This document shows, in pieces, positions 21,907 through 39,479 of a stretch of DNA of 64,000 nucleotides (the first letter of the stretch is position 1; the number at the start of each line of letters is the position of its first letter). The DNA comes from Synechococcus sp. PCC 6312 (GTDB lineage Bacteria > Cyanobacteriota > Cyanobacteriia > Thermosynechococcales > Thermosynechococcaceae). The notes beneath the pieces are model-generated. The model was given only the letters and a program-made list of their open reading frames with translations. It was not told where the DNA came from and did not search any database. The stretch covers positions 807,501-871,500 of the forward strand of contig NC_019680.1 of assembly GCF_000316685.1 (NCBI RefSeq), written 5' to 3'. The position numbers were made by a program, and so were the translations under genes.

Positions 21907-22014
21907 CTCAAAACACTGCGCCAACCCAAAACAGCCAATCCTGGGAAGGACGATTATCTAGAACCCCTCTTTCCAGAAATTGAGGGTTAAAAAATACTTT
22001 AACTTCTGACCCAG

Positions 22015-22158
22015 TAGCCAGGCCAAGTCCAGGTTGTGTGGAAACTTACTGGATTTCTCCCCTGTATAATCTATTGAGTGAAAACTTGACATTCAGCCTA
22101 AACACCTTATCGTATCGTTCTTTTAAACGGAAACTTTCTGTCTAATCCATAGTTAGGT
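22015..22158 (+). repeat. cassette-flanking repeat, copy A
   Basis: First of four related repeats. It contains the exact 17-mer AACTTGACATTCAGCCT (from 22083) shared by copies B, C and D, an attC-like inner part from GCCTAAAC (22096) and a terminal GTTAGGT (22152-22158). The hydrolase gene follows. Left of 22015 the 110 bases after the VOC gene hold no gene. The rest of the intergenic stretch to 22285 is a leader without further structure that I can see. Confidence 0.72.
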
Positions 22159-22285
22159 GGCTTAAATTTTCGGTGAGGGCACGGTTGAGAGATTCTCCGT
22201 TGGTGTTTGAGATTAAGACGATCTTGAGAAGATTCAGTAAAGGCGTACAATCGGGCTTGAGCGTTACAAGTTTGGCAGAGTCGAG

Positions 22286-23119
22286 ATGAATAGAAATGAG
22301 CAATTGCAAGATCAATATGTCAAGGTCGGTTCAGTTAATACCCGATATTGGCAAACTGGTGATTCAGGCAGCACAGTCATTTTGCTTCATGGTGGCGGCG
22401 GTTATATTGAGTTGTGGAAGCACAATATCTTTGAATTAGCCACACATCATCGTGTTTATGCGTTTGATATGGTTGGTGCGGGTCGCTCAGATAAAATCGA
22501 TGCGAATTATACCTTTGATTTTATGGCTCATTTCACGCGAGATTTCCTGAAGGCTTTAAACATCCCGAAAGCGAGTTTGATTGGAACTTCTGCGGGTGGT
22601 GGAGTAGCACTCACCTTTGCGCTGAACTTTCCAGAGCTAGTCGATCGACTGATTCTGGTTGGCAGTGCTGGCTTAGGTAAAGACATCAATTTTCTGCTGC
22701 GGATCACAACGCTTCCGGGTTTAGGCAAATTATTTAGTGCGCCAAGCAAATCGGGTGTGGCGATGTTGTGTAAACAGGCGGTTTATGACTCAAATCTCAT
22801 TACCGATGAAATTGTCGAGGAGTTTTATCAAATGGCGACACTTCCTGGTGCAGCAGAAGCAACATTGAACCTTGGTCGTTCAAACTTCAGTATTTGGGGA
22901 CAGTTTTATCAGCCGATTCTTAAGAGATTGCAGACCGTTACTGCTCCAACCTTAATCATCTGGGGCAGACAAGATACAATGGTTCCTGTAAGTCATGGTC
23001 AGAAGGCTGCTAAACTCATCCCCAATGCCCGACTGGAGATTTTTGATGAGTGTGGTCATTGGAGTCCAATCGAGCATCCACAAAAATTCAATCAGCTAGT
23101 TTTAGAGTTTTTGGCTTGA
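22286..23119 (+). CDS. alpha/beta hydrolase (cassette-like)
   Basis: A 277-residue hydrolase with VILLHGGGGYIELW (oxyanion hole), YAFDMVGAGRSDK, the nucleophile elbow GTSAGGG (GxSxG) near residue 107, TLIIWGRQDTMVP (acid) and DECGHWSPIEHP (His). It resembles C-C bond hydrolases and haloalkane-dehalogenase-like esterases; the Ser nucleophile excludes dehalogenase chemistry. Unlike its native neighbours the gene carries no CAGGCC palindromes. It lies between repeat A and an attC-like site, as expected of an integron cassette. Confidence 0.9.
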   Translation: MNRNEQLQDQYVKVGSVNTRYWQTGDSGSTVILLHGGGGYIELWKHNIFELATHHRVYAFDMVGAGRSDKIDANYTFDFMAHFTRDFLKALNIPKASLIGTSAGGGVALTFALNFPELVDRLILVGSAGLGKDINFLLRITTLPGLGKLFSAPSKSGVAMLCKQAVYDSNLITDEIVEEFYQMATLPGAAEATLNLGRSNFSIWGQFYQPILKRLQTVTAPTLIIWGRQDTMVPVSHGQKAAKLIPNARLEIFDECGHWSPIEHPQKFNQLVLEFLA

Positions 23120-23147
23120 GGATTAAACTTGTTGATAGTTACCAGCC

Positions 23148-23230
23148 ACCTAACACAGCACTTGAGCAGCTAGGAGACTCTTCTTGCTTCATTCGAGCTT
23201 ACTTGTCGCCACTAAGCACGACTGCTAGGT
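23148..23230 (+). other. attC-like recombination site
   Basis: Begins 28 bases after the hydrolase stop with ACCTAAC (fits RYYYAAC) and ends with GCTAGGT (23224-23230), its near-exact reverse complement; length 83 bases. The inner arms, GCACTTGAGCAGC and the reverse complement of the 3' side, match imperfectly. Read on the minus strand the terminal core is a perfect GTTAGGT, so the orientation is not certain. Confidence 0.5.
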
Positions 23231-23305
23231 GAAATAAACTCCGAGTAGTCAAAGCATGAAAGAAAAACTTTTCCGTGGCCAATTATCCAAGCTCCAAAGT
23301 TAATC
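23231..23305 (+). repeat. repeat flanking an attC-like site (copy 1)
   Basis: The sequence GAAATAAACTCCGAGTAGTC followed by AAAGCATGAA recurs, about 70 percent identical over some 65 bases, directly behind the attC at 29337, and a partial copy precedes repeat C near 27105. It may be a shared cassette end or the remains of a repeated noncoding cassette. Confidence 0.45.
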
Positions 23306-23346
23306 ACTCCCAATCATCCATCATAGATAACCTCATGAGCATTCTC

Positions 23347-24096
23347 TTATCGGGCTAAACGGGTCGCTGTGACCATGACAAGATGAACCATAATGTGAGA
23401 AATCATCGCAGCTTCAAGACCTTTACGCCAATAGAGATAACCTGCGATTAAACCAAAAACTGAATTAGCAACAAGCACATAGGCAATCACTGACCAAGTA
23501 ACTTGCGTTTTTAGGGCGAAGGCAAGGGGTAAATGCCCCAAGGCAAACAAGAAAGCTGAAAGGGCGATTGCAGCCACAAAGATAAATGCAGCGGGTTCAC
23601 CCTGCCCCTGTGAAAAAATGCGCCAACCTAGCCAGACGAAAAGCGTCATCATTCCCCATCTCAGCAATAACTCTTCAGTCATGCCTCCATAGAGAATGCG
23701 TGTGAAAAGTGAGGTATTGTTCGCTAGTGCATCCGCCTTCATGACAAAGTCTGAGGGTAGAAAGAACTTAGCCCTGAATTGAATAGCAGTCAGTACAATA
23801 CCGCCACCCAAACCGCCAATAATCCCTGGAAGCACCTGGGGTTGAATCGCTAGGCTGATTGAAGTTCCATTGGCGACTGCCTCAGCGAAAGGTGCGGATA
23901 ACCCAACTTTATCAGCCAGAATAACACCGATTAATACAGCAACAGATAAAAGCAAGGTTGGCTGAATCAAGGAAAGAAGCTTGATCCCCCAGGCCGAGAG
24001 TTGTGGTTTTTCACTTTCAGGAATAGGTAAGTTCATCCACAAAAGAGAGACAACACCTGTCATGCCTGTTAGCCACAAAATTGTAAACAACTTCAT
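23347..24096 (-). CDS. CPBP (CAAX/Abi-type) intramembrane protease
   Basis: A 249-residue membrane protein with about six hydrophobic segments. The CPBP motifs are present: GGMTEELLLRWGMM (EExxxR), FALGHLPLAF (FxxxH) and NSVFGLIAGYLYWRKGLEAAMISH ending in the second conserved His. Such proteins act in prenyl-protein processing, bacteriocin self-immunity or signalling. It is the only gene of this block on the minus strand. The 260 bases between its start and 24357 contain no gene or clear attC. Confidence 0.87.
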   Translation of the reverse strand: MKLFTILWLTGMTGVVSLLWMNLPIPESEKPQLSAWGIKLLSLIQPTLLLSVAVLIGVILADKVGLSAPFAEAVANGTSISLAIQPQVLPGIIGGLGGGIVLTAIQFRAKFFLPSDFVMKADALANNTSLFTRILYGGMTEELLLRWGMMTLFVWLGWRIFSQGQGEPAAFIFVAAIALSAFLFALGHLPLAFALKTQVTWSVIAYVLVANSVFGLIAGYLYWRKGLEAAMISHIMVHLVMVTATRLAR

Positions 24097-24397
24097 TGGT
24101 ATCAGATTGAACCCTAATTACAGAGCGATCTTACGTTTAAAACGACTAAATCAGGCATTACATATTTCAGAGATGAGCGAAAAAATGTGCTTGAAGCTGG
24201 CCACTTAAAGTTGCTGATTTTCTAAGGCTTTAAAAGGACAGACAATAGTGTAACTTTTCTCACCCATCTTCCAATTATGCAATGCCCTTTCAAGAAAAGT
24301 GAGTGATAACATAGAACTTAGAGCTAGATATCTAGCGTTTTGCTGTAGATGAACTTGTTGGGCATCACAGGAAACCCCACATTCAACGTAGCTGCTC

Positions 24398-24868
24398 ATG
24401 CTCACATCTCTTTCACTTCTTCTCTGCCTCGGGGCCGGGCTAATTGCGGGTGTGTTTCTGGCCTTCTCAAACTTTGTGATGAAAGCACTCACCGAGATAC
24501 CCGCCGAACAAGGCGCCGCCGCCATGCAACGTATCAACGTTGTTGTTCTCAATCCGCTGTTTCTCGGCATATTTGTCAGCGCGGCGATCCTCGCAGCGAT
24601 CTGCATCTTCGTTGCATTCTACCCCTGGGGCACAGTGAAGTCCCTGCTACTCCTCACAGCTGGCTTGAGCTATCTGATTGGGTCTTTCGGTGTCACAGCG
24701 GCGTTCAACGTACCGCTAAACGAACACTTGGCAGGCTTATCTCCCGAATCCGTTGAAACCGCTACATATTGGCCAGTTTACGTGCGGGAGTGGCTCATGT
24801 GGAATCATGTGCGTACCGTAGCCTCGGTCGTGTCGGCGGCGAGTGCTGCCCTAGCCCTAGCATACTGA
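24398..24868 (+). CDS. DUF1772 membrane protein in a gene cassette
   Basis: A 156-residue protein with four predicted membrane helices (LSLLLCLGAGLIAGVFLAFS, NPLFLGIFVSAAILAAICIF, LLLLTAGLSYLIGSFGVTAA and a C-terminal Ala-rich helix), the layout of DUF1772. Conserved NVPLNEHLAGL lies between helices three and four. Base composition is more GC-rich than the neighbours and the gene lacks CAGGCC repeats. It is bounded by GTTGGGC (24357-24363) on the left and an attC ending GTTGGGT (24943-24949) on the right, so it fits a single-gene integron cassette of about 590 bases. Confidence 0.86.
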   Translation: MLTSLSLLLCLGAGLIAGVFLAFSNFVMKALTEIPAEQGAAAMQRINVVVLNPLFLGIFVSAAILAAICIFVAFYPWGTVKSLLLLTAGLSYLIGSFGVTAAFNVPLNEHLAGLSPESVETATYWPVYVREWLMWNHVRTVASVVSAASAALALAY

Positions 24869-24894
24869 GCCGCAAGAGTGAAGCACTCAATGAT

Positions 24895-24949
24895 GCCTAA
24901 CCCCTCGCCCGAGCGAACCTCCACTGGCTGCTTATGTCAAACGTTGGGT
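24895..24949 (+). other. attC recombination site (59-base-element type)
   Basis: Starts with GCCTAAC (24895-24901) and ends with GTTGGGT (24943-24949), matching the R'' and R' consensus RYYYAAC and GTTRRRY and pairing with only G-T wobbles. Inside, TCGCCCGAGC and GCTTATGTCAAAC occupy the places of the L'' and L' arms of classical attC sites. Length 55 bases. It lies 26 bases after the DUF1772 stop codon. Confidence 0.75.
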
Positions 24950-24989
24950 TGCTAAAGTTGCGACTGATTCAGTAGGCGGTTGAGCTTGT

Positions 24990-25670
24990 ATGGAATTTGT
25001 ATTTAACACAAGGTCGGTAAACTCGTCTTTTGTCGAAATGATCTGGCAGACTACTAGCGATTGCGCTGGTACTTTTACTTCGGTAGCTGTCAGCAATTGG
25101 GAGATGGTGATCACGACCTTCAACGGCAAAACGAGGATCACCGCACGAGGTCCAGAGACGAAAGCATCGGAAGCTGATTTTCCCGCCAACGCTGAGTTCT
25201 TTGGCATCACTTTCAAACTTGGCACGTTCATGCCCCATCTCCCTGTAAAAACCCTTCTGGATAGACAGGATGTGACTTTTCCTAAAGCGTCAAGCAAGTC
25301 CTTCTGGCTACATGGCTTGGCGTGGGAGTTTCCGACTTTTGAAAACGCGGACGTGTTCGTCAACAGGCTTATCCATCAGAAGATGCTCGTGCGCGATTCA
25401 GTGGTCGCGGCAGCAATCCAGGGACATATGCCCGATCTGTCCAGACGTTCTCTACAGTATCGCTTCTTGCAGGCAACAGGATTAACCCACAAGACGATTC
25501 AGCAAATTGAACGCGCCCGCAGTGCCGTTTTGCTGCTTGAGCAAGGTACGCCTATTTGTGACACTGCCTTAGAGCTACGCTACTTCGATCAGGCACATCT
25601 AACCAATTCACTAAAACGCTTCATTGGAAAAACGCCTGCACAAGTTGCTCATAAACGTGCGGTTAAATAG
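24990..25670 (+). CDS. AraC-family transcriptional regulator
   Basis: A 226-residue regulator. The C-terminal 90 residues form the paired helix-turn-helix of AraC proteins: LSRRSLQYRFLQATGLTHKT, IERARSAVLLLEQG, then ELRYFDQAHLTNSLKRFIG with the usual TPAQ after it. The N-terminal domain is a ligand- or partner-binding region that I cannot assign. It starts 41 bases after an attC end and is followed, 81 bases on, by a RibD-like reductase gene in the same orientation; such pairs often form a regulator-target unit. Confidence 0.88.
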   Translation: MEFVFNTRSVNSSFVEMIWQTTSDCAGTFTSVAVSNWEMVITTFNGKTRITARGPETKASEADFPANAEFFGITFKLGTFMPHLPVKTLLDRQDVTFPKASSKSFWLHGLAWEFPTFENADVFVNRLIHQKMLVRDSVVAAAIQGHMPDLSRRSLQYRFLQATGLTHKTIQQIERARSAVLLLEQGTPICDTALELRYFDQAHLTNSLKRFIGKTPAQVAHKRAVK

Positions 25671-25751
25671 GTTGCGTTTTTTTCCAAGACTCTGCCCTTT
25701 TGCCGTACTAGAGTTGCAATTACAGACAGCGAGCGGCAAAAGGAGAACAAT

Positions 25752-26288
25752 ATGCGAAAAGTTGTCGTCACCGAATTCTTGTCCCTAGATGGCGTTATAG
25801 AAGAACCCGCCTGGACTGCCCCCTACTGGAATGATGAAATCGCGAAGTTTAAAGGCGAGGAGCAAGATACCAGCGATGCCTTGTTGTTGGGGCGTGTGAC
25901 CTATCAAGGGTTTGCAGCAGCCTGGCCAACGAGCAAGGATGAAGGGGCAGACTATATGAACAACGTACCCAAATACGTGGTGTCAACAACCCTAAGCATG
26001 TTGACGTGGAGCAACTCAACGCTGATTAAAGACAATGTTGTAGAGGAAATCGCCAAACTCAAGCAGCAGGACGGTCAGGACATTCTAGTTTACGGCAGTG
26101 CCACGCTTGTGCATATACTCATGCAACATGATCTTGTGGATCGCTACCGACTGCTGGTCTACCCGGTGGTGGTGGGCAAAGGTAAGCACTTGTTTAAAGA
26201 AAGCACTACCGTGTCTTTAAAGCTTTTGGAATCACAGCTATTCAGCTCAGGTGTTGTGGCACTGATCTATGAACCAGATCGCAAATAA
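25752..26288 (+). CDS. dihydrofolate reductase-family protein (RibD C-terminal domain)
   Basis: A 178-residue NADPH-binding reductase. It starts MRKVVVTEFLSLDGVIEEP, continues with LLLGRVTYQGFAAAWP, NVPKYVVSTTL and ILVYGSATLVHILMQHDLVD, and ends with the strand pair LVYPVVVGKGKHLF, all typical of the RibD_C/YwjB class. The substrate is unknown; these are common in integron cassettes and near AraC regulators. It follows the AraC gene in the same cassette-like unit, which ends at repeat B. Confidence 0.92.
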   Translation: MRKVVVTEFLSLDGVIEEPAWTAPYWNDEIAKFKGEEQDTSDALLLGRVTYQGFAAAWPTSKDEGADYMNNVPKYVVSTTLSMLTWSNSTLIKDNVVEEIAKLKQQDGQDILVYGSATLVHILMQHDLVDRYRLLVYPVVVGKGKHLFKESTTVSLKLLESQLFSSGVVALIYEPDRK

Positions 26289-26460
26289 TTAACAGGCCCA
26301 TTCAAATTTTGGGTAGAACATAGCAGCAATTTGCGGGGCAATCAGATTTGGCCAGGCCTGGTTATGGGCGTTGCATAGTTGGAGGGTGGATGAGAAAAAT
26401 TACAATATCGTCTATCCTTTCCTAAGGTCAATCATTCGAGGGTAGTACCTTAGATTGAAG

Positions 26461-26596
26461 TAGCCAGGCCAAGTCCAGACCAGGCAAAAACTTCCTTTAT
26501 TTTTCTGTGTAATTATTGACTGGAAACTTGACATTCAGCCTCAACGCCTTAGTAGTTCTTTGACACGGGAACCTTCTGCCCAATTCCTTGTTAGGC
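26461..26596 (+). repeat. cassette-flanking repeat, copy B
   Basis: Second copy of the repeat; shares TAGCCAGGCCAAGTCCAG with copy A and AACTTGACATTCAGCCT (from 26525) with all copies, and ends in GTTAGGC (26590-26596). A CCAGGCCTGG lies about 105 bases to its left. It separates the reductase gene from the small pair that follows. The bases 26289-26460 show no gene. Confidence 0.72.
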
Positions 26597-26633
26597 CATA
26601 AAATAAGTAGCAGTACAAAACGAGTGAGCGTCA

Positions 26634-26891
26634 GTGAAAGTCACCGAGTACTTTAAATCTGTTTGCCTCAGGCCTGATCGAGTGGAGCTCAAGATAGAGT
26701 GGATAGAAAGTACTATTGAAAGTCCGATAAAAAGAGAGATTCAATTAGATGGAAGGATCAAATGCTGGTCAAAAATAAGAGAGAAAGATAAGTATTTAAG
26801 GGTTATTTTGTTAAAAGATGGGGAAACAGTTCACAACGCTTTTTTTGATAGGGGATTTAAGGAAGAGAAAAATGAAAATTCAATACTTTGA
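26634..26891 (+). CDS. small DUF4258-like protein, candidate toxin of a pair
   Basis: An 85-residue protein starting at GTG 26634. It reads YFKSVCLRPDRVELKIEWIE, then REIQLDGRIKCWSKI, YLRVILLKDGETVHNAFFDR. I recall cyanobacterial proteins with this layout (RPDR..I..EWIE, then GETVHNAFFDRGFK) next to DUF2283 proteins, as here, where the two genes overlap by 20 bases. This arrangement resembles a toxin-antitoxin pair of the kind that stabilises integron arrays. The function is inferred from context only. Confidence 0.62.
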   Translation: MKVTEYFKSVCLRPDRVELKIEWIESTIESPIKREIQLDGRIKCWSKIREKDKYLRVILLKDGETVHNAFFDRGFKEEKNENSIL

Positions 26892-27069
26892 AGATACTGA
26901 CACGTTATACATAACCTTTTCTCAGAAGATTCCAAACGAGACAAGAGAAATTGACGAGAATACTCTACTAGATTTAGACGAAGGCGGACAACTTTGTGGA
27001 ATGACCATTGAACACGCCAAAGATAGAGTGGGTATTCCAGAGGTAAAGTATGAAAAAATTCCCACATAA
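26872..27069 (+). CDS. DUF2283 protein, candidate antitoxin
   Basis: A 65-residue protein starting at ATG 26872 (MKIQYFEDTDTLYITFS). The family signature continues with ENTLLDLDEGGQLCGMTIEHA. DUF2283 proteins often accompany small DUF4258-type partners. It overlaps the upstream gene by 20 bases, which suggests translational coupling. A frame extension upstream to 26818 overlaps the partner too much to be favoured. Confidence 0.8.
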   Translation: MKIQYFEDTDTLYITFSQKIPNETREIDENTLLDLDEGGQLCGMTIEHAKDRVGIPEVKYEKIPT

Positions 27070-27104
27070 CCCTTAGATGAAGTAAATCCTGAATACATAC
27101 AGCA

Positions 27105-27165
27105 TGAAATAAAAAACTTTCAGAGGTCAACTATTCAAGTTCATAGGTCGAACACTCGAAGGGTG
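27105..27165 (+). repeat. partial copy of the attC-flanking repeat
   Basis: GCATGAAATAAAAAACTTTC and the following AGAGGTCAACTATTC match the sequence behind the attC at 29337 (GCATGGAATAAAAATTC, then AGGTCAATTGCTC). Here it lies upstream of repeat C, suggesting both repeats once formed one longer unit of about 220 bases. Confidence 0.42.
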
Positions 27166-27196
27166 AGGATCAGATGAGTGTGGGATAAATAACCCT

Positions 27197-27325
27197 GCCA
27201 AATTCAAGCCGGGCCGAAACTTCCTTTATTTTTCCGTGCAACTATTGAGTGACAACTTGACATTCAGCCTAAAAACCTTAAGGATACTTTTAGACAGAAT
27301 TTTTCCACCTAATAGATAGTTAGAC
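27197..27325 (+). repeat. cassette-flanking repeat, copy C
   Basis: Third copy of the repeat. It shares GAAACTTCCTTTATTTTTC-like sequence with copy B and AACTTGACATTCAGCCT (from 27254) with all copies, and ends in GTTAGAC (27319-27325), which fits GTTRRRY. The nuclease-vWA gene starts 52 bases later. Confidence 0.72.
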
Positions 27326-27377
27326 AATTATTTTTTCAAAAAAACTACTTCCTTAATTAGAAGTCTATTTTTATTTC

Positions 27378-29177
27378 ATGCAGAGAAGCAATAGAATGAA
27401 ACCAATCGAAACTGCAAGTGAACTTTATCGCGAGATCAAGAAACGTGGGCTTCATCTTCGCAAAGAAAACGGACGGGACAACTCACTACTTCAGGAGCTT
27501 AAAAATAAGCTTGGGTGCGAAAATCTACGCTTACAGGAATTTTTCGATACAACAGATTTATCTGCTGAAGTCTTTCTGAAGAATTTTCTACAACTGTCTG
27601 CCCCATTTGCTTGCATGTTTAAGGAAATATGGCATTACTTGAACAGCCAATATGCACCGAATGCTACAGAAACTATTTCCGTTCGCTTTGGTTTTGAGGA
27701 CTCGGAAGACCAATGCTCGGTTGATCTAGAACAATTTCGTCGATATGTTGAGACTATTGAACGATTTTTATCCACTGTTACTACCCAACTTTGGCCCCGT
27801 GAAGCTCTCAATAGGCTATTCCATCTTGGTAATGTGTTGATTGATGAAGCAAATGAGCCAACACGGAAGCTTTATAATGAACATGGACGTTATGAGCCTG
27901 GAAAATCTTACAAATTGCCTATTGTAAGCTCCATTGATCATCCTTTTGACAAGATTATCAAGGACATCAGTGAGGTTTTCAAGTGCATCATCGACAGTTA
28001 TGTAGTTGAACAGGAACACCAACGGACAACAAGACAACTCCCAGAACTTAAAGGAAATACGAAAGAATCTGAGGAGCAGATGTCTTTAAGATTATCGACT
28101 TACTTGCTAACAGACTTACTTCCCGTATGGTTTTACATACTAGATAGATATCCTGAAATCAAAAGCAGTGCGAAAGATACTGCTCTTAAAGAATACAAAA
28201 ATAGCGTAGAACCACTCCTTTTATCGAAGGAGAGTATCACTGAATCTGTGCTTTGGGAAGCTCTCGACATTCTTGATCTTCCATTTTGGCGTCATCGGTG
28301 GCATACATACGAAGTTTGGGCTAGTGTGCTGACATTGCAGTCTCTCAAAGCTTACAGACCTACCCTGAGAATTGAAAAAGGGCATGTTGCTCTCGACGGA
28401 TTCTCAGCAGCAGTCGTTGCTGACCTAAAAGCTAGTGATCATAGTTCAGCGTGCCTAGCTGTTCAGGTTGAAACACCTTTCAAGCGGGGAAAACGAAAAG
28501 CAATCAAACCTGATCTAAGAGTTTGTTTCGACAATCCGAAATTGATAGACAATACTGCAGGCGTGGTCGAATTCAAGCAGAGATGGAAAATTAATAGAAA
28601 AGAATTAGAAGAAATGGCCATTGCTTACTCAAGAGGTTGCCCAAAGAGTGGAGGAGTCATAATCCTGAATTATGACAAGACAGACACACCTGTTTCCCTT
28701 CCGCCTAGAGCATATCTCATAGAAGGAGTGCATCCTCAAAACCCAAATAATGTAAAACAATTCCAGCAGCAGCTATTAAAAATCCTGGAGGACGCTGGTT
28801 TAATTCCCATGACTGAAGAGACTGTAGTTCTTCTAGATGTTTCATCAAGCATGGGATATTTGTACCAAGATAGTGAAGTCCAAAAGTACTTGTGCGAACT
28901 TCTAGCTATTCCTTGGATAAAGATTTTTCGTTTTAACGATGGTTTGATTGCGGGAGGAGATATTGATACAGCAATGGCACAAAACCTTACGACGAGTGGA
29001 GGAACACAACTTGGGAAGGCTCTGTTAGACATCGAATCGCTTTTCGGACTACCAACTAAGCTTTTGATCGTAACTGATGGCGAACACGACAACCCAAGGA
29101 AATTTCTGGATCGAATACAGAATGTAAAAGAGTGTTTACCAGGAGAAATCGGAAAAGAAATCCAATGGCTAAGATAG
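27378..29177 (+). CDS. PD-(D/E)XK nuclease-like and vWA domain protein, candidate defence gene
   Basis: I do not recognise this 599-residue protein as a named family, but two domains can be read. Near residues 310-435 there is a nuclease-like core: acidic E312, KPDLRV with D379, and VVEFKQ with E398 and K400, then a helix and GGVIILNYD, the order of PD-(D/E)XK enzymes. Residues 480-575 form a von Willebrand A domain with a full MIDAS: D487-x-S489-x-S491, T543 in SGGTQLG, D567 in VTDGE. The first 300 residues are helical and unassigned. The gene lacks native palindromes, follows repeat C and is followed by an attC, so it is carried as a cassette. Anti-phage or DNA-processing function is inferred only. 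Confidence 0.7.
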   Translation: MQRSNRMKPIETASELYREIKKRGLHLRKENGRDNSLLQELKNKLGCENLRLQEFFDTTDLSAEVFLKNFLQLSAPFACMFKEIWHYLNSQYAPNATETISVRFGFEDSEDQCSVDLEQFRRYVETIERFLSTVTTQLWPREALNRLFHLGNVLIDEANEPTRKLYNEHGRYEPGKSYKLPIVSSIDHPFDKIIKDISEVFKCIIDSYVVEQEHQRTTRQLPELKGNTKESEEQMSLRLSTYLLTDLLPVWFYILDRYPEIKSSAKDTALKEYKNSVEPLLLSKESITESVLWEALDILDLPFWRHRWHTYEVWASVLTLQSLKAYRPTLRIEKGHVALDGFSAAVVADLKASDHSSACLAVQVETPFKRGKRKAIKPDLRVCFDNPKLIDNTAGVVEFKQRWKINRKELEEMAIAYSRGCPKSGGVIILNYDKTDTPVSLPPRAYLIEGVHPQNPNNVKQFQQQLLKILEDAGLIPMTEETVVLLDVSSSMGYLYQDSEVQKYLCELLAIPWIKIFRFNDGLIAGGDIDTAMAQNLTTSGGTQLGKALLDIESLFGLPTKLLIVTDGEHDNPRKFLDRIQNVKECLPGEIGKEIQWLR

Positions 29178-29250
29178 AAATATAAAAAGTTGAGTAAAAA
29201 TTATTTTTGATTCTGTGCTGAATCCTGCTGTCAGGTGAGTATTGTGTTAG

Positions 29251-29337
29251 GTCTAACAATTTGGCTGGAGCGAACTAGCTAAGACCTCTAATGTGGATAT
29301 GTAGGCTACTTACGGCCGCTCAGCCGCAACGTTAGGA
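29251..29337 (+). other. attC recombination site
   Basis: Starts with GTCTAAC (29251-29257) and ends with GTTAGGA (29331-29337). The inner arms GGCTGGAGCG and CGCTCAGCC pair with one unpaired base, the extrahelical-base arrangement that orients attC sites for integron integrases. Length 87 bases. The terminal A departs from GTTRRRY. It lies 74 bases after the nuclease-vWA stop codon. Confidence 0.76.
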
Positions 29338-29410
29338 AAAATAAAATCTGAGTAGTCTAAGCATGGAATAAAAATTCTTAAAGGTCAATTGCTCTAGCTC
29401 AGAGGTCAGA
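29338..29410 (+). repeat. repeat flanking an attC site (copy 2)
   Basis: AAAATAAAATCTGAGTAGTC and TAAGCATGGAATAAAAATTC resemble the sequence behind the attC-like site at 23230. It marks the right end of the cassette-like region; the native methyltransferase gene follows at 29495. No gene is seen between. Confidence 0.45.
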
Positions 29411-37402: not shown

Positions 37403-37564
37403 GTCGCTGAGCTTTCTAGAGGAGATACACACTACCCCTAGCTTTCTGAGTTAATATCCTAATCGGATAAATTTACGGTGATCGATATGGAAGACTGTGA
37501 CTTAAACTAATTTGGGGTATTACGCGGAGATTTCTGCTTTTTAGTCCCTATAGGTAACTTAGGA

Positions 37565-37640
37565 AGAAACTTGACATTCAGCCTAAACACCTTAATAGTT
37601 CTTTTAGAAGGAAACTTTCTGTCTAATCCATTAGCTAGGC
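37565..37640 (+). repeat. cassette-flanking repeat, copy D
   Basis: Fourth copy, far from the others. AACTTGACATTCAGCCT (from 37568) is followed by AAACACCTTA, AGTTCTTTTAGAAGG and GTCTAATCCATTA as in copy A, and it ends in GCTAGGC (37634-37640), one base off GTTRRRY. The methyltransferase gene of an R-M system starts 59 bases later. The remaining intergenic stretch from 37403 holds no gene. Confidence 0.7.
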
Positions 37641-37699
37641 GGCACTAGGACGAAGAAACTGATACAGTCAACAACCATTACGAAGTAAAGGAGCACTAA

Positions 37700-38683
37700 A
37701 TGGCCAATAAATCGCATTTCAATAGTGGACACATGGCAATAAATCAATTGAAAAAGAATGGGGCTTTGCATAGTTCAACGATCACAGGAATTTCAACGCC
37801 ACACACGGTTCATGGTGTCTTTATTCAAGATGCAGTTGACTTTTTGAAAGCATTGCCTGATTCATCAGTTCAATTAATACTGATAGATCCGCCATATAAT
37901 CTTGACTTAGACAACTGGGATAGTTTCCATAACTATCTCGATTGGGCAAAAGGGTGGTTGGATCAAATCTGTCGTGTATTATCTGATTCAGGTAACTGTG
38001 TCATTTTTGGAGGCTTTCAATATCAAGATTTAAAGAAGGGAGACCTCCTTGAAGTCCTTCATTATACGCGCCATAAAACAGCTTTACGATTTGTCAACCT
38101 TATCATTTGGTACTACAAGAACGGTATGAGTGCGCATCGCTTTTTTGCCAACAGGCATGAAGAAGCAGTTTGGCTTTCCAAGACGAAGAAATACTATTTC
38201 GATCTGGACTCTGTTAGGGTTCCATTTGATGATGCGACAAAAGAGATGTACAAAAAAGACAAGCGTCTCAATCCCGAAAGTATTGACAAGGGGAAAAACC
38301 CTACAAATGTTTGGGAAATAGGGAGGCTAAATGGCAATTCAACCGAAAGAGTTGGCCATCTAACGCAAAAGCCAGTCGAACTTATCCGGCGTTTTGTTAA
38401 AGCTCTGTCCTTTGAAGGTTCGATAGTCCTTGATTTTTTTGCCGGTTCTGGAACAACAGGGCGTGTTTGCATAGAAGAACGACGGCATTCACTCTTGGTA
38501 GATTCAGATAATAAACTGTACGGTTATTTAGACAAACACATTAGTCAGATTCAACCGAATTTGTTTTTGCCCGAATATCGTCTGATGAAAGACACAAACA
38601 TTAATACCGTACTTGAAGAAATTTCTTGGGTGAATCAACAACTTCCGCAAAATATTCTTGATAAGGACTATTTAAATGAGTAA
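37700..38683 (+). CDS. N6-adenine DNA methyltransferase, M.RsrI-like
   Basis: The 327-residue enzyme is a beta-class methyltransferase: the catalytic motif IV DPPYNLDLDNWD comes before the SAM-binding motif I VLDFFAGSGTTGRV. As I recall M.RsrI, long identical stretches are present: ANRSHHNAGH-like start, NGMSAQRFFANRHEE-like block and KDKRLNPES...NPTNVW. M.RsrI protects GAATTC. The stop overlaps the start of the endonuclease gene by 8 bases, a standard R-M arrangement. The gene lacks native palindromes and lies directly behind repeat D. Confidence 0.95.
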   Translation: MANKSHFNSGHMAINQLKKNGALHSSTITGISTPHTVHGVFIQDAVDFLKALPDSSVQLILIDPPYNLDLDNWDSFHNYLDWAKGWLDQICRVLSDSGNCVIFGGFQYQDLKKGDLLEVLHYTRHKTALRFVNLIIWYYKNGMSAHRFFANRHEEAVWLSKTKKYYFDLDSVRVPFDDATKEMYKKDKRLNPESIDKGKNPTNVWEIGRLNGNSTERVGHLTQKPVELIRRFVKALSFEGSIVLDFFAGSGTTGRVCIEERRHSLLVDSDNKLYGYLDKHISQIQPNLFLPEYRLMKDTNINTVLEEISWVNQQLPQNILDKDYLNE

Positions 38684-39479
38684 AGGACAAGCAAAACGGC
38701 TAACCAAGCAGCACATATCCTCAGGAGGCGTAAGCGGCATCTTTGGCGAAGAGGCCCAGGTACATGATCAGTCTGTTGGTTGTGCAAGTACGAGTGTATT
38801 TGAGGAACTTAAGCGAGAATATCCAAGGTATCAATTTAGATTCAGACAAGCGATCAGCAAACAGGAAATAAATGAGAAGCTAAACTCAATTGACAAGCGA
38901 TTGGGAAAAACTCTCTTCGTAAAAGAGTCAAAAATCAAACCCGATGGAGGAATTATTGAGGTTCAGGACAAAGATAAAAGATGGAGGGTAGTTTTAGTTA
39001 GTGAAGCAAAGTTTCAAGGAAAAGACGTTGAAAATATTAAGGCAGGCGTACTTGTTGGGAAGAAGAAAGATCAAGAATTAATGGTAGCAGGAAACGCTAT
39101 CGAAAGAGTTTACAAAAACATTAATGAAATCAGGAACTTCATGCTCGACGAATATCATTTCCCGTATGCAGTATTCTTGCAAGGCTCAAACTTTGCAACC
39201 GAAACAGTTCAGGTATTTAAACCCGACGGTTCTTTCGTGGAAATTAGACATGATTCAGGTGCAATGAATAGAATTGACAGGGTAACAGCAGCAAATTATT
39301 GTATGAAGATTAATTGTAATTACTGTAAGAATTTTTTTATAGGTCATAAGAATTCGTCAATAATGCTTCAAGCCGCTTCCATTTATGCAAGATGCGAACC
39401 TTGGAAAGAGGATGAAATGCGGAAAATTATGATGGATATTGCAAACACATCCATAGGAATCTTAAATCAGTTGGGATAA
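38676..39479 (+). CDS. type II restriction endonuclease, EcoRI family
   Basis: The 267-residue protein aligns with R.EcoRI, as I remember it, over nearly its whole length: GIFGEEAQVHDQSVG, IKPDGGIIEVQDKD, WRVVLVSEAKFQGKD, GNAIERVYKNINEI, and HKNSSIMLQAASIY. The catalytic triad D90, E110 and K112 is intact, and the recognition segment GNAIER is conserved, so cleavage at GAATTC is predicted. With the upstream methyltransferase it forms a complete R-M system. A GAATTC site lies inside the gene at 39350. The region is AT-rich and free of CCAGGCCTGG. Confidence 0.95.
   Translation: MSKGQAKRLTKQHISSGGVSGIFGEEAQVHDQSVGCASTSVFEELKREYPRYQFRFRQAISKQEINEKLNSIDKRLGKTLFVKESKIKPDGGIIEVQDKDKRWRVVLVSEAKFQGKDVENIKAGVLVGKKKDQELMVAGNAIERVYKNINEIRNFMLDEYHFPYAVFLQGSNFATETVQVFKPDGSFVEIRHDSGAMNRIDRVTAANYCMKINCNYCKNFFIGHKNSSIMLQAASIYARCEPWKEDEMRKIMMDIANTSIGILNQLG

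What the first reader, a model, noticed from the sequence alone, without database searches (positions are those of the whole stretch)
22015..29410. Integron-style cassette array without a visible integrase
Between native backbone genes lie seven or more unrelated small genes (hydrolase, CPBP protease, DUF1772, AraC plus RibD-like, DUF4258/DUF2283-like pair, nuclease-vWA) that, apart from a CAGGCC in the CPBP gene and one CCAGGCCTGG in a spacer, lack the palindrome found in native genes. They are separated by attC-like sites. Two of these, at 24895 and 29251, fit classical R''/L''/L'/R' organisation. This fits a CALIN-type cluster (cassettes lacking an integrase). Integron structures in cyanobacteria are not widely described to my knowledge.
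Basis: partly seen in the sequence, partly recalled or inferred. Interest (0 to 1): 0.86.

Follow-up and report, generated by a model that had tools for sequence, protein, structure and literature searches.

The report
Scattered integron docking sites without integrase
This stretch of a cyanobacterial chromosome holds foreign genes captured the way integrons capture them, but they sit at several copies of the integron docking site, and such copies are scattered around the chromosome although the enzyme that uses them is gone.

Summary
A covariance model trained only on attC sites of other cyanobacteria confirms a classical attC at 29250-29338 (44.5 bits, E 6e-10) and a degenerate one at 23147-23231 (E 0.009); 24895 is not significant (E 1.1). 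No IntI over the cut-off exists in the genome. But the repeated spacers at 22013, 26459 and 27187 are not attC. They belong to a family of ~75-145 nt that ends at the integron core GTTRRRY, has an inverted core just before it, usually carries TTGACA, and in two other genomes lies, with strong scores, beside intI and divergent from it: attI. This genome has 15 attI-like places; 9 are followed within 2.2 kb on the same strand by an attC (random mean 0.07). The cassette's R'' complements the attI R' it sits on (46 of 50 variable positions, p 1e-5), the mark of cassette insertion there. Another genus of the family (G280) has its own attI in seven scattered copies, each followed by attC, two beside clear intI remnants. 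So these are dispersed integrase-less attI-cassette platforms, most likely decayed copies of an integron platform, not simply a CALIN. CALINs and cyanobacterial integrons are known; I found no account of scattered attI copies in cyanobacteria in the papers searched.

The parts
22013..22158 (+). attI-like site 1; R' GTTAGGT at 22152-22158, TTGACA at 22086-22091
   Evidence: Repeat family, aligned; model R2 80 bits
22286..23119 (+). alpha/beta hydrolase gene, cassette at attI 1
   Evidence: Pfam Abhydrolase_1 1.2e-35; 82% DNA identity of 22263-23155 to plasmids of Nostocales, homology ends at R'' of the attC
23147..23231 (+). degenerate attC of the hydrolase cassette; R'' ACCTAAC 23148-23154 is the exact complement of R' of attI 1; its own R' GCTAGGT 23224-23230 is off consensus
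   Evidence: 18.2 bits, E 0.0093
23347..24096 (-). CPBP/Rce1-like protein gene, opposite strand, no supported att site of its own
   Evidence: Pfam Rce1-like 1.5e-10
24398..24868 (+). Anthrone_oxy (DUF1772) gene
   Evidence: Pfam 8.1e-17
24894..24950 (+). possible relic attC (R'' GCCTAAC, R' GTTGGGT), not significant
   Evidence: 10.7 bits, E 1.1
24990..25670 (+). AraC-type regulator gene
   Evidence: Pfam HTH_18 1.8e-10; with the next gene 81% DNA identity to Calothrix plasmids
25752..26288 (+). RibD_C (dihydrofolate reductase family) gene
   Evidence: Pfam 1.3e-25
26459..26596 (+). attI-like site 2; R' GTTAGGC 26590-26596; on the 3' side of the AraC-RibD pair, where an attC would be expected
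   Evidence: R2 68.3 bits
26634..26891 (+). small ORF (GTG start), no Pfam hit
26872..27069 (+). DUF2283 gene
   Evidence: Pfam 1.9e-18
27187..27325 (+). attI-like site 3; R' GTTAGAC 27319-27325
   Evidence: R2 72.3 bits
27396..29177 (+). large cassette ORF (reader: nuclease-vWA), no Pfam hit
29250..29338 (+). classical attC; R'' GTCTAAC is the complement of R' of attI 3 (GTTAGAC)
   Evidence: 44.5 bits, E 5.6e-10
37557..37639 (+). attI-like site 4, outside the finding; R' GCTAGGC 37633-37639
   Evidence: R2 81.8 bits
37700..39479 (+). type II methyltransferase and restriction enzyme genes starting about 60 nt after attI-like site 4; no attC found behind them
   Evidence: PADLOC MTase_II 348 bits, REase_II 389 bits

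Best explanation
The stretch is part of a set of dispersed, integrase-less integron platforms. Each platform is a copy of an attI site with a conserved promoter-like sequence pointing at it. An integron integrase, now absent from this genome, inserted circular gene cassettes at the core G|TTRRRY of individual attI copies; most loaded copies hold one cassette whose gene starts about 40-140 nt behind the core and could be read from the attI-borne promoter. In the window three attI copies carry the hydrolase cassette with a degenerate attC, the DUF2283 unit which is bounded on both sides by attI instead of attC, and the 27396 cassette with a classical attC. SHOWN by sequence: attC sites, attI family, its place beside intI elsewhere, R'/R'' matching, same-strand order, no IntI here. 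INFERRED: that the copies arose as copies of a whole intI-attI platform whose intI genes then decayed (remnants seen in other genomes, not in this one), that the promoter works, and that the platforms could still be used by an IntI supplied in trans.
For: attI identity: a model of the element built without any intI-linked sequence hits the non-coding stretch upstream of intI, pointing away from it, at E 3e-18 in G346, 2e-4 and 3e-4 in two more, and E 0.003-0.04 in three more of 16 intI loci; in G282 an R2 match of 62.8 bits lies 176 nt from a partial intI. Form: copies end at GTTRRRY-like cores preceded by YCTAAT plus 5 nt. Loading: 9 of 15 attI-like places are followed within 2.2 kb on the same strand by attC; random mean 0.072, maximum 3 in 20000 trials; 0 with either strand flipped. 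Insertion mark: R' of attI against R'' of the first cassette, 46 of 50 variable positions, shuffled mean 29.5, p 1e-5, whereas the same attC sites match their own R' at only 23 of 50. Second genus: G280 has a different attI in 7 places, 7 of 7 followed by same-strand attC, 32 of 35 positions, p 4e-4. Decay: intI remnants in the divergent position upstream of G280 copies L142 (76.9 bits) and L099 (E 2e-11) and of G413 copy 485543 (E 1e-13). The stretches behind the two window attC sites share 42 nt at 83%, as expected if cassettes were inserted into copies of one ancestral attI region.
Against: In the window's own genome 0 of 15 attI-like places have an intI remnant within 900 nt upstream at E 0.05, so decay there is inferred from relatives. 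6 of 15 places have no attC behind them; in G346 (2 extra copies) and G413 (7 places) none do. 10 of 16 intI loci have no hit to the element near intI at E below 0.05, among them G193, which itself has four loaded copies; the two complete intI of G413 have none either. The promoter is not supported by a consensus scan (11 sites against 12.4 in shuffles; only copy 1 listed). The CPBP and Anthrone_oxy genes have no significant att site.
Confidence: 0.78

Rival explanations
1. Plain CALIN: the remains of one cassette array, from one lost integrase or from insertion of cassettes at non-attI sites, with a dispersed repeat of other origin in the spacers.
For: attC sites without IntI; an array of four attC at C1:1906553-1910142 with no attI-like hit in the fetched stretch is CALIN-like; CALINs are common (passages of PMC8618304).
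Against: The spacer repeats end at the core, sit beside intI in other genomes and their R' matches the R'' of the cassette behind them; two supported attC 6 kb apart are hardly a cluster.
Confidence: 0.12
2. The attI copies were spread one by one as part of attI-type cassettes (gene plus attI in place of attC), which IntI can excise and insert, into attI or into unspecific sites.
For: In the window attI-like sites 2 and 3 stand where attC is expected and bound the DUF2283 unit on both sides; for class 1 integrons such delta-attI cassettes are excised and inserted by IntI1 (passages of PMC12901181); at C1 1845292/1843727 and 2291130/2292619 an attI copy is repeated together with the 3' end of the gene before it.
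Against: intI remnants beside copies in G280 and G413 point to whole platforms; left edges of the copies show no common core-like cut that I could define.
Confidence: 0.3
3. A MITE-like or palindromic repeat that was spread by a transposase and only secondarily serves as an integration site.
For: Copies contain palindromes TTAGAC..GTCTAA, in tandem upstream in some; several stand directly behind native genes.
Against: Within the own genome R2 finds only partial palindromes apart from the attI-like places; conservation ends at the core; intI linkage.
Confidence: 0.1

Closest known systems
CALIN (cluster of attC sites lacking an integrase)
   Same: attC-bearing cassettes, no intI nearby or in the genome
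   Different: Here attI copies lie between the cassettes, most loaded copies hold one attC, and the copies are spread over the chromosome
Sedentary chromosomal integron of cyanobacteria
   Same: attC structure (model trained on intI-linked sites), attI with core, cassettes
   Different: No intI; many attI instead of 'typically one' (wording of PMC9024848, passage)
CALIN with its own attI in Shewanella prophage M16-3 (PMC9892861, passages)
   Same: an attI site at the start of an integrase-less array, identical in type to the attI of a complete integron
   Different: one extra copy in a prophage; here 15 places in one genome and 7 in another genus
delta-attI-type gene cassettes of class 1 integrons (PMC12901181, passages)
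   Same: attI in the place of attC at the 3' side of a cassette, as at window sites 2 and 3
   Different: truncated attI inside one array of a mobile integron; here longer sites with conserved upstream sequence, chromosomal, dispersed

Membership tests
CALIN | at least two attC sites (threshold as in a passage of PMC12444791) close together (IntegronFinder's 4 kb distance, recalled) | tested here: inconclusive
   Two significant attC in the stretch, 6 kb apart; a third candidate between them not significant
CALIN | no integron integrase nearby | tested here: met
   best match in the genome 22.4 bits, cut-off 265
Complete integron | intI gene | tested here: not met
Complete integron | attC with R''/L''/L'/R' fold | tested here: met
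   29250-29338; structure of the model supported by covariation
attI site | core GTTRRRY with inverted L core | tested here: met
   alignments; exceptions: w37566 GCTAGGC, 1843727 ATTTAGA
attI site | lies beside intI in a complete integron | tested here: met
   in relatives: E 3e-18 in G346, weaker in five more of 16 loci, G282; not in 10 of 16
attI site | receives cassettes at G|TTRRRY | tested here: met
   R'/R'' matching 46 of 50, p 1e-5; by sequence only
attI site | recombination by IntI | not testable with these tools
   needs an assay
delta-attI-type cassette | attI or part of it 3' of the cassette gene | tested here: met
   window 26459-26596 and 27187-27325
delta-attI-type cassette | excisable by IntI | not testable with these tools
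   needs an assay

The most novel reading that the evidence does not exclude
A polycentric integron: instead of one attI with a long array, several cyanobacterial lineages keep many scattered attI-promoter docking sites per chromosome, each capturing and expressing its own cassette, to be served in trans by one integrase or by one that visits with plasmids, phages or DNA from neighbours. G193, with a complete intI elsewhere and four loaded scattered copies, would be the living form; this genome and G280 forms that have lost the enzyme.
Probability: 0.3. Interest if true: 0.8.

Novelty: new variant of a known kind. Interest (0 to 1): 0.63.

Why it matters
Integrons are described as having typically one attI next to the integrase, and current tools do not look for attI outside class 1 (passages of PMC9024848), so scattered platforms would be booked as single attC sites or CALINs. 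If right, many integrase-less cassettes were inserted on target at extra attI copies rather than off target, the first cassette of every platform keeps a potential promoter, and attC-bearing cyanobacterial genomes (89 of 386 at E 1e-4; by my comparison, 20 of these 89 have an IntI over the cut-off) hold more integron history than IntI counts suggest. It also gives attI sequences for a phylum with few described.

Tried and rejected
Tried without result: Rfam; tRNA as anchor (none); a strict motif scan that first missed 29251 because my R''/R' threshold was too tight, mended; conserved right-hand ends of the units (23 right flanks compared, one similar pair only); synteny through the right-hand backbone gene (22 loci, none with the left-hand glyoxalase gene, one with a relative of the 30319 ORF 4 kb away); defence functions for the window cassettes (none of the six window proteins from 22286-29174 that I gave; the CPBP was among them, the AraC and RibD genes were not given).

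Considered and rejected: the spacer repeats as attC sites of a divergent kind (no L''/L' pairing in the DNA folds, single-copy core at one end, intI linkage). G241 as a third example: its shared repeats do not stand in a consistent place upstream of its arrays. The plasmid relatives of the hydrolase and AraC-RibD units as integrons: no attC hit in the five plasmid loci, although the hydrolase copies keep an R''-like AGCTAAC where homology ends.

Limits: the attC model is trained on 14 cyanobacterial sites and may miss attC of other bacteria (24895 may be one). Model R2 was trained on 14 sequences, 10 of them copies of this genome, so their own hits are no test; the five further places (1808440, 2292618, 1607379, 3132848, 939208) and the nhmmer test are. 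For the count of 9 of 15 I used 18 attC places and left out two weak ones (1513500, 877433), neither near an attI-like place. The 10 own units include 2292618 with a weak attC (16.6 bits, E 0.21) whose match is perfect. Numbers of attC per genome are capped at 11 scored candidates. A same-strand attC also lies within 2.2 kb UPSTREAM of 2 of 15 attI-like places, both second members of tandem units.
Full report
What the window is. The genome (G000) has 3,720,499 bases in two contigs, the larger 3,697,276; the window is C1:807501-871500. These sizes fit, from memory, Synechococcus sp. PCC 6312; no call names the organism.

I took 16 stretches, 15 around intI genes of 14 other cyanobacterial genomes and one adjoining, found attC sites with a motif scan, aligned 14 of them and checked the R''/L''/L'/R' structure: 87.7% of cells pair against 69.9% in shuffles, 43 two-sided changes against 15.5. 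The covariance model R1 built from them holds nothing from this genome. In the window it finds 29250-29338 (44.5 bits, E 5.6e-10), 23147-23231 (18.2 bits, E 0.0093) and then only noise, 24894-24950 among it (10.7 bits, E 1.1). In the whole genome 13 places reach E 1e-3, among them four close together at C1:1906553-1910142; one more (C1:1004602-1004691, 37.6 bits) came out when its stretch was searched alone. 297 of 386 cyanobacterial genomes have no hit at E 1e-4, among them three genomes of the same family, so the model does not ring everywhere.

No integrase. IntI (TIGR02249) has its best match in the genome at 22.4 bits against a cut-off of 265, the C-terminal part of a recombinase on the small contig.

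The spacers are attI-like. Three spacers of the stretch (22013, 26459, 27187) and one at 37557 belong to one repeat family with further copies elsewhere on the chromosome. Aligned, nearly all copies end at GTTRRRY-like cores with YCTAAT and five bases before; 10 of the 14 aligned rows have TTGACA 60-70 nt upstream. A profile of the family, built without any intI-linked sequence, hits the stretch upstream of intI, pointing away from it, in G346 (E 3.1e-18; intI complete, 331 aa), in L051 and L050 (2e-4, 3e-4) and in L053, L045 and L048 (0.003, 0.025, 0.043), that is 3 of 16 intI loci at E below 1e-3 and 6 of 16 below 0.05. In G282 a 62.8-bit match lies 176 nt from a partial intI. The other intI loci have other sequences there; attI is evidently lineage-specific. 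The attI beside intI in G346 obeys the same rule as below (GTTAGGCA against GTTGGGCA from the R'' of its cassette).

Dispersed and loaded. The sequence model R2 finds 15 places in the genome at E 0.01 or better, five of them not in its training set. 9 of 15 are followed by a same-strand attC within 2.2 kb; random placement gives 0.072 on average and at most 3 in 20,000 trials, flipped strands 0; the same count upstream is 2, both in tandem units. The cassettes between are unrelated: DUF6119, a short-chain dehydrogenase, Ribonuc_L-PSP, SnoaL, and ORFs without a Pfam hit; the fourth window copy stands about 60 nt before a type II restriction-modification pair, with no attC found behind it.

The insertion mark. 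When IntI inserts a circular cassette, the bases behind the G of the attI core come from the cassette and are complementary to the R'' of its attC (established knowledge of integrons). For ten units of this genome the five variable core positions match in 46 of 50 cases; shuffled pairings give 29.5 on average and reach 46 in 1 of 100,000; the same attC sites match their own R' in only 23 of 50. With four units of G193 and one of G282 it is 66 of 75. In the window 22152-22158 GTTAGGT answers to ACCTAAC at 23148-23154, and 27319-27325 GTTAGAC to GTCTAAC at 29251-29257. This speaks for cassettes inserted at each attI copy, not for one array that fell apart.

A second genus. G280, same family, another genus, without IntI over the cut-off, has attC sites in several places. 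Upstream of four of its arrays stands a repeat of different sequence that again ends in CTAATC[AG]ATA-GTTRKRC-like cores and contains TTGACA. A search finds seven copies in G280 and none in the other 57 genomes. All seven are followed by a same-strand attC, at up to about 3 kb, and 32 of 35 core positions match (shuffled mean 21.1, p 0.0004; the one poor pair is L142). G193, which has a complete intI (332 aa), has four loaded copies of the first type. G346 has two extra copies and G413 seven places, none with attC behind. G241, rich in attC, does not show the pattern.

Where the copies come from. Upstream of G280 copy L142, on the divergent strand as in a complete integron, lie 64 N-terminal residues of IntI (76.9 bits), upstream of L099 24 residues (E 2e-11), upstream of G413 copy 485543 about 40 residues (E 1e-13), with weaker traces at L143 (E 0.001) and at one G193 copy (E 0.02); the 15 places of the window's genome have none. 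So at least some copies are platforms whose intI has been cut away. The stretches behind the two window attC sites share 42 nt at 83%, as copies of one ancestral right flank would. Against whole platforms as the only road, window sites 2 and 3 look like attI-type cassettes, known for class 1 integrons to be excised and inserted by IntI1 (PMC12901181, passages), and two tandem cases repeat an attI copy with the 3' end of the gene before it.

Known or new. In print, from passages: integrons in cyanobacteria (PMC2426708; PMC8352920), CALINs and ideas about their origin (PMC8618304), attI 'typically one' and not searched for outside class 1 (PMC9024848), a Shewanella prophage with an attI before an integrase-less array (PMC9892861), off-target sites (PMC12444791; PMC10127599), archaeal integrons (PMC9668308). 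Searches for accounts of several or orphan attI or of this strain's integrons listed no paper that, by title or start of abstract, describes scattered attI copies in cyanobacteria; most subscription papers are not in that library. I therefore call it a new variant of a known kind.

Noticed in passing
window 37557-39479: An attI-like copy stands about 60 nt before a type II methyltransferase and restriction enzyme pair; no attC behind it.
   Followed up: partly
L067 (C1:2286000-2298000): The 3' end of a gene that I read from memory of the family as urease alpha (ureC) is repeated together with an attI-like copy: gene end, attI, cassette, attC, gene end again, attI again, weak attC.
   Followed up: partly
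L066 (C1:1838500-1850500): A similar tandem: two attI-like copies share 256 nt upstream at 77%, including an ORF end.
   Followed up: partly
L093 (C1:1906553-1910142): Four attC on one strand within 4 kb and a fifth weak one, no attI-like hit in the stretch: a more ordinary CALIN.
   Followed up: no
L142 1360-1551 (G280): N-terminal 64 residues of IntI, whose frame runs on into letters that look, from memory, like the C-terminal IntI motif: an intI with an internal deletion beside an attI copy.
   Followed up: partly
G413: Two complete intI genes and several N-terminal intI pieces in one genome, with seven attI-like places of this window's type not beside the complete ones.
   Followed up: partly
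window 22263-23155 and 24990-26289: 81-82% DNA identity to genes on plasmids of Nostocales (Calothrix, Tolypothrix, Nostoc), so these units travelled between distant cyanobacteria.
   Followed up: partly
window 1-64000: The genome lacks GCGATCGC in the window but is rich in GGCC-centred words (GGCCTGG about 2 per kb in backbone), useful to tell native from acquired DNA.
   Followed up: partly
L023 and L064 (G413): Two attI-like copies are interrupted or flanked by the same short palindrome-ended insert.
   Followed up: no
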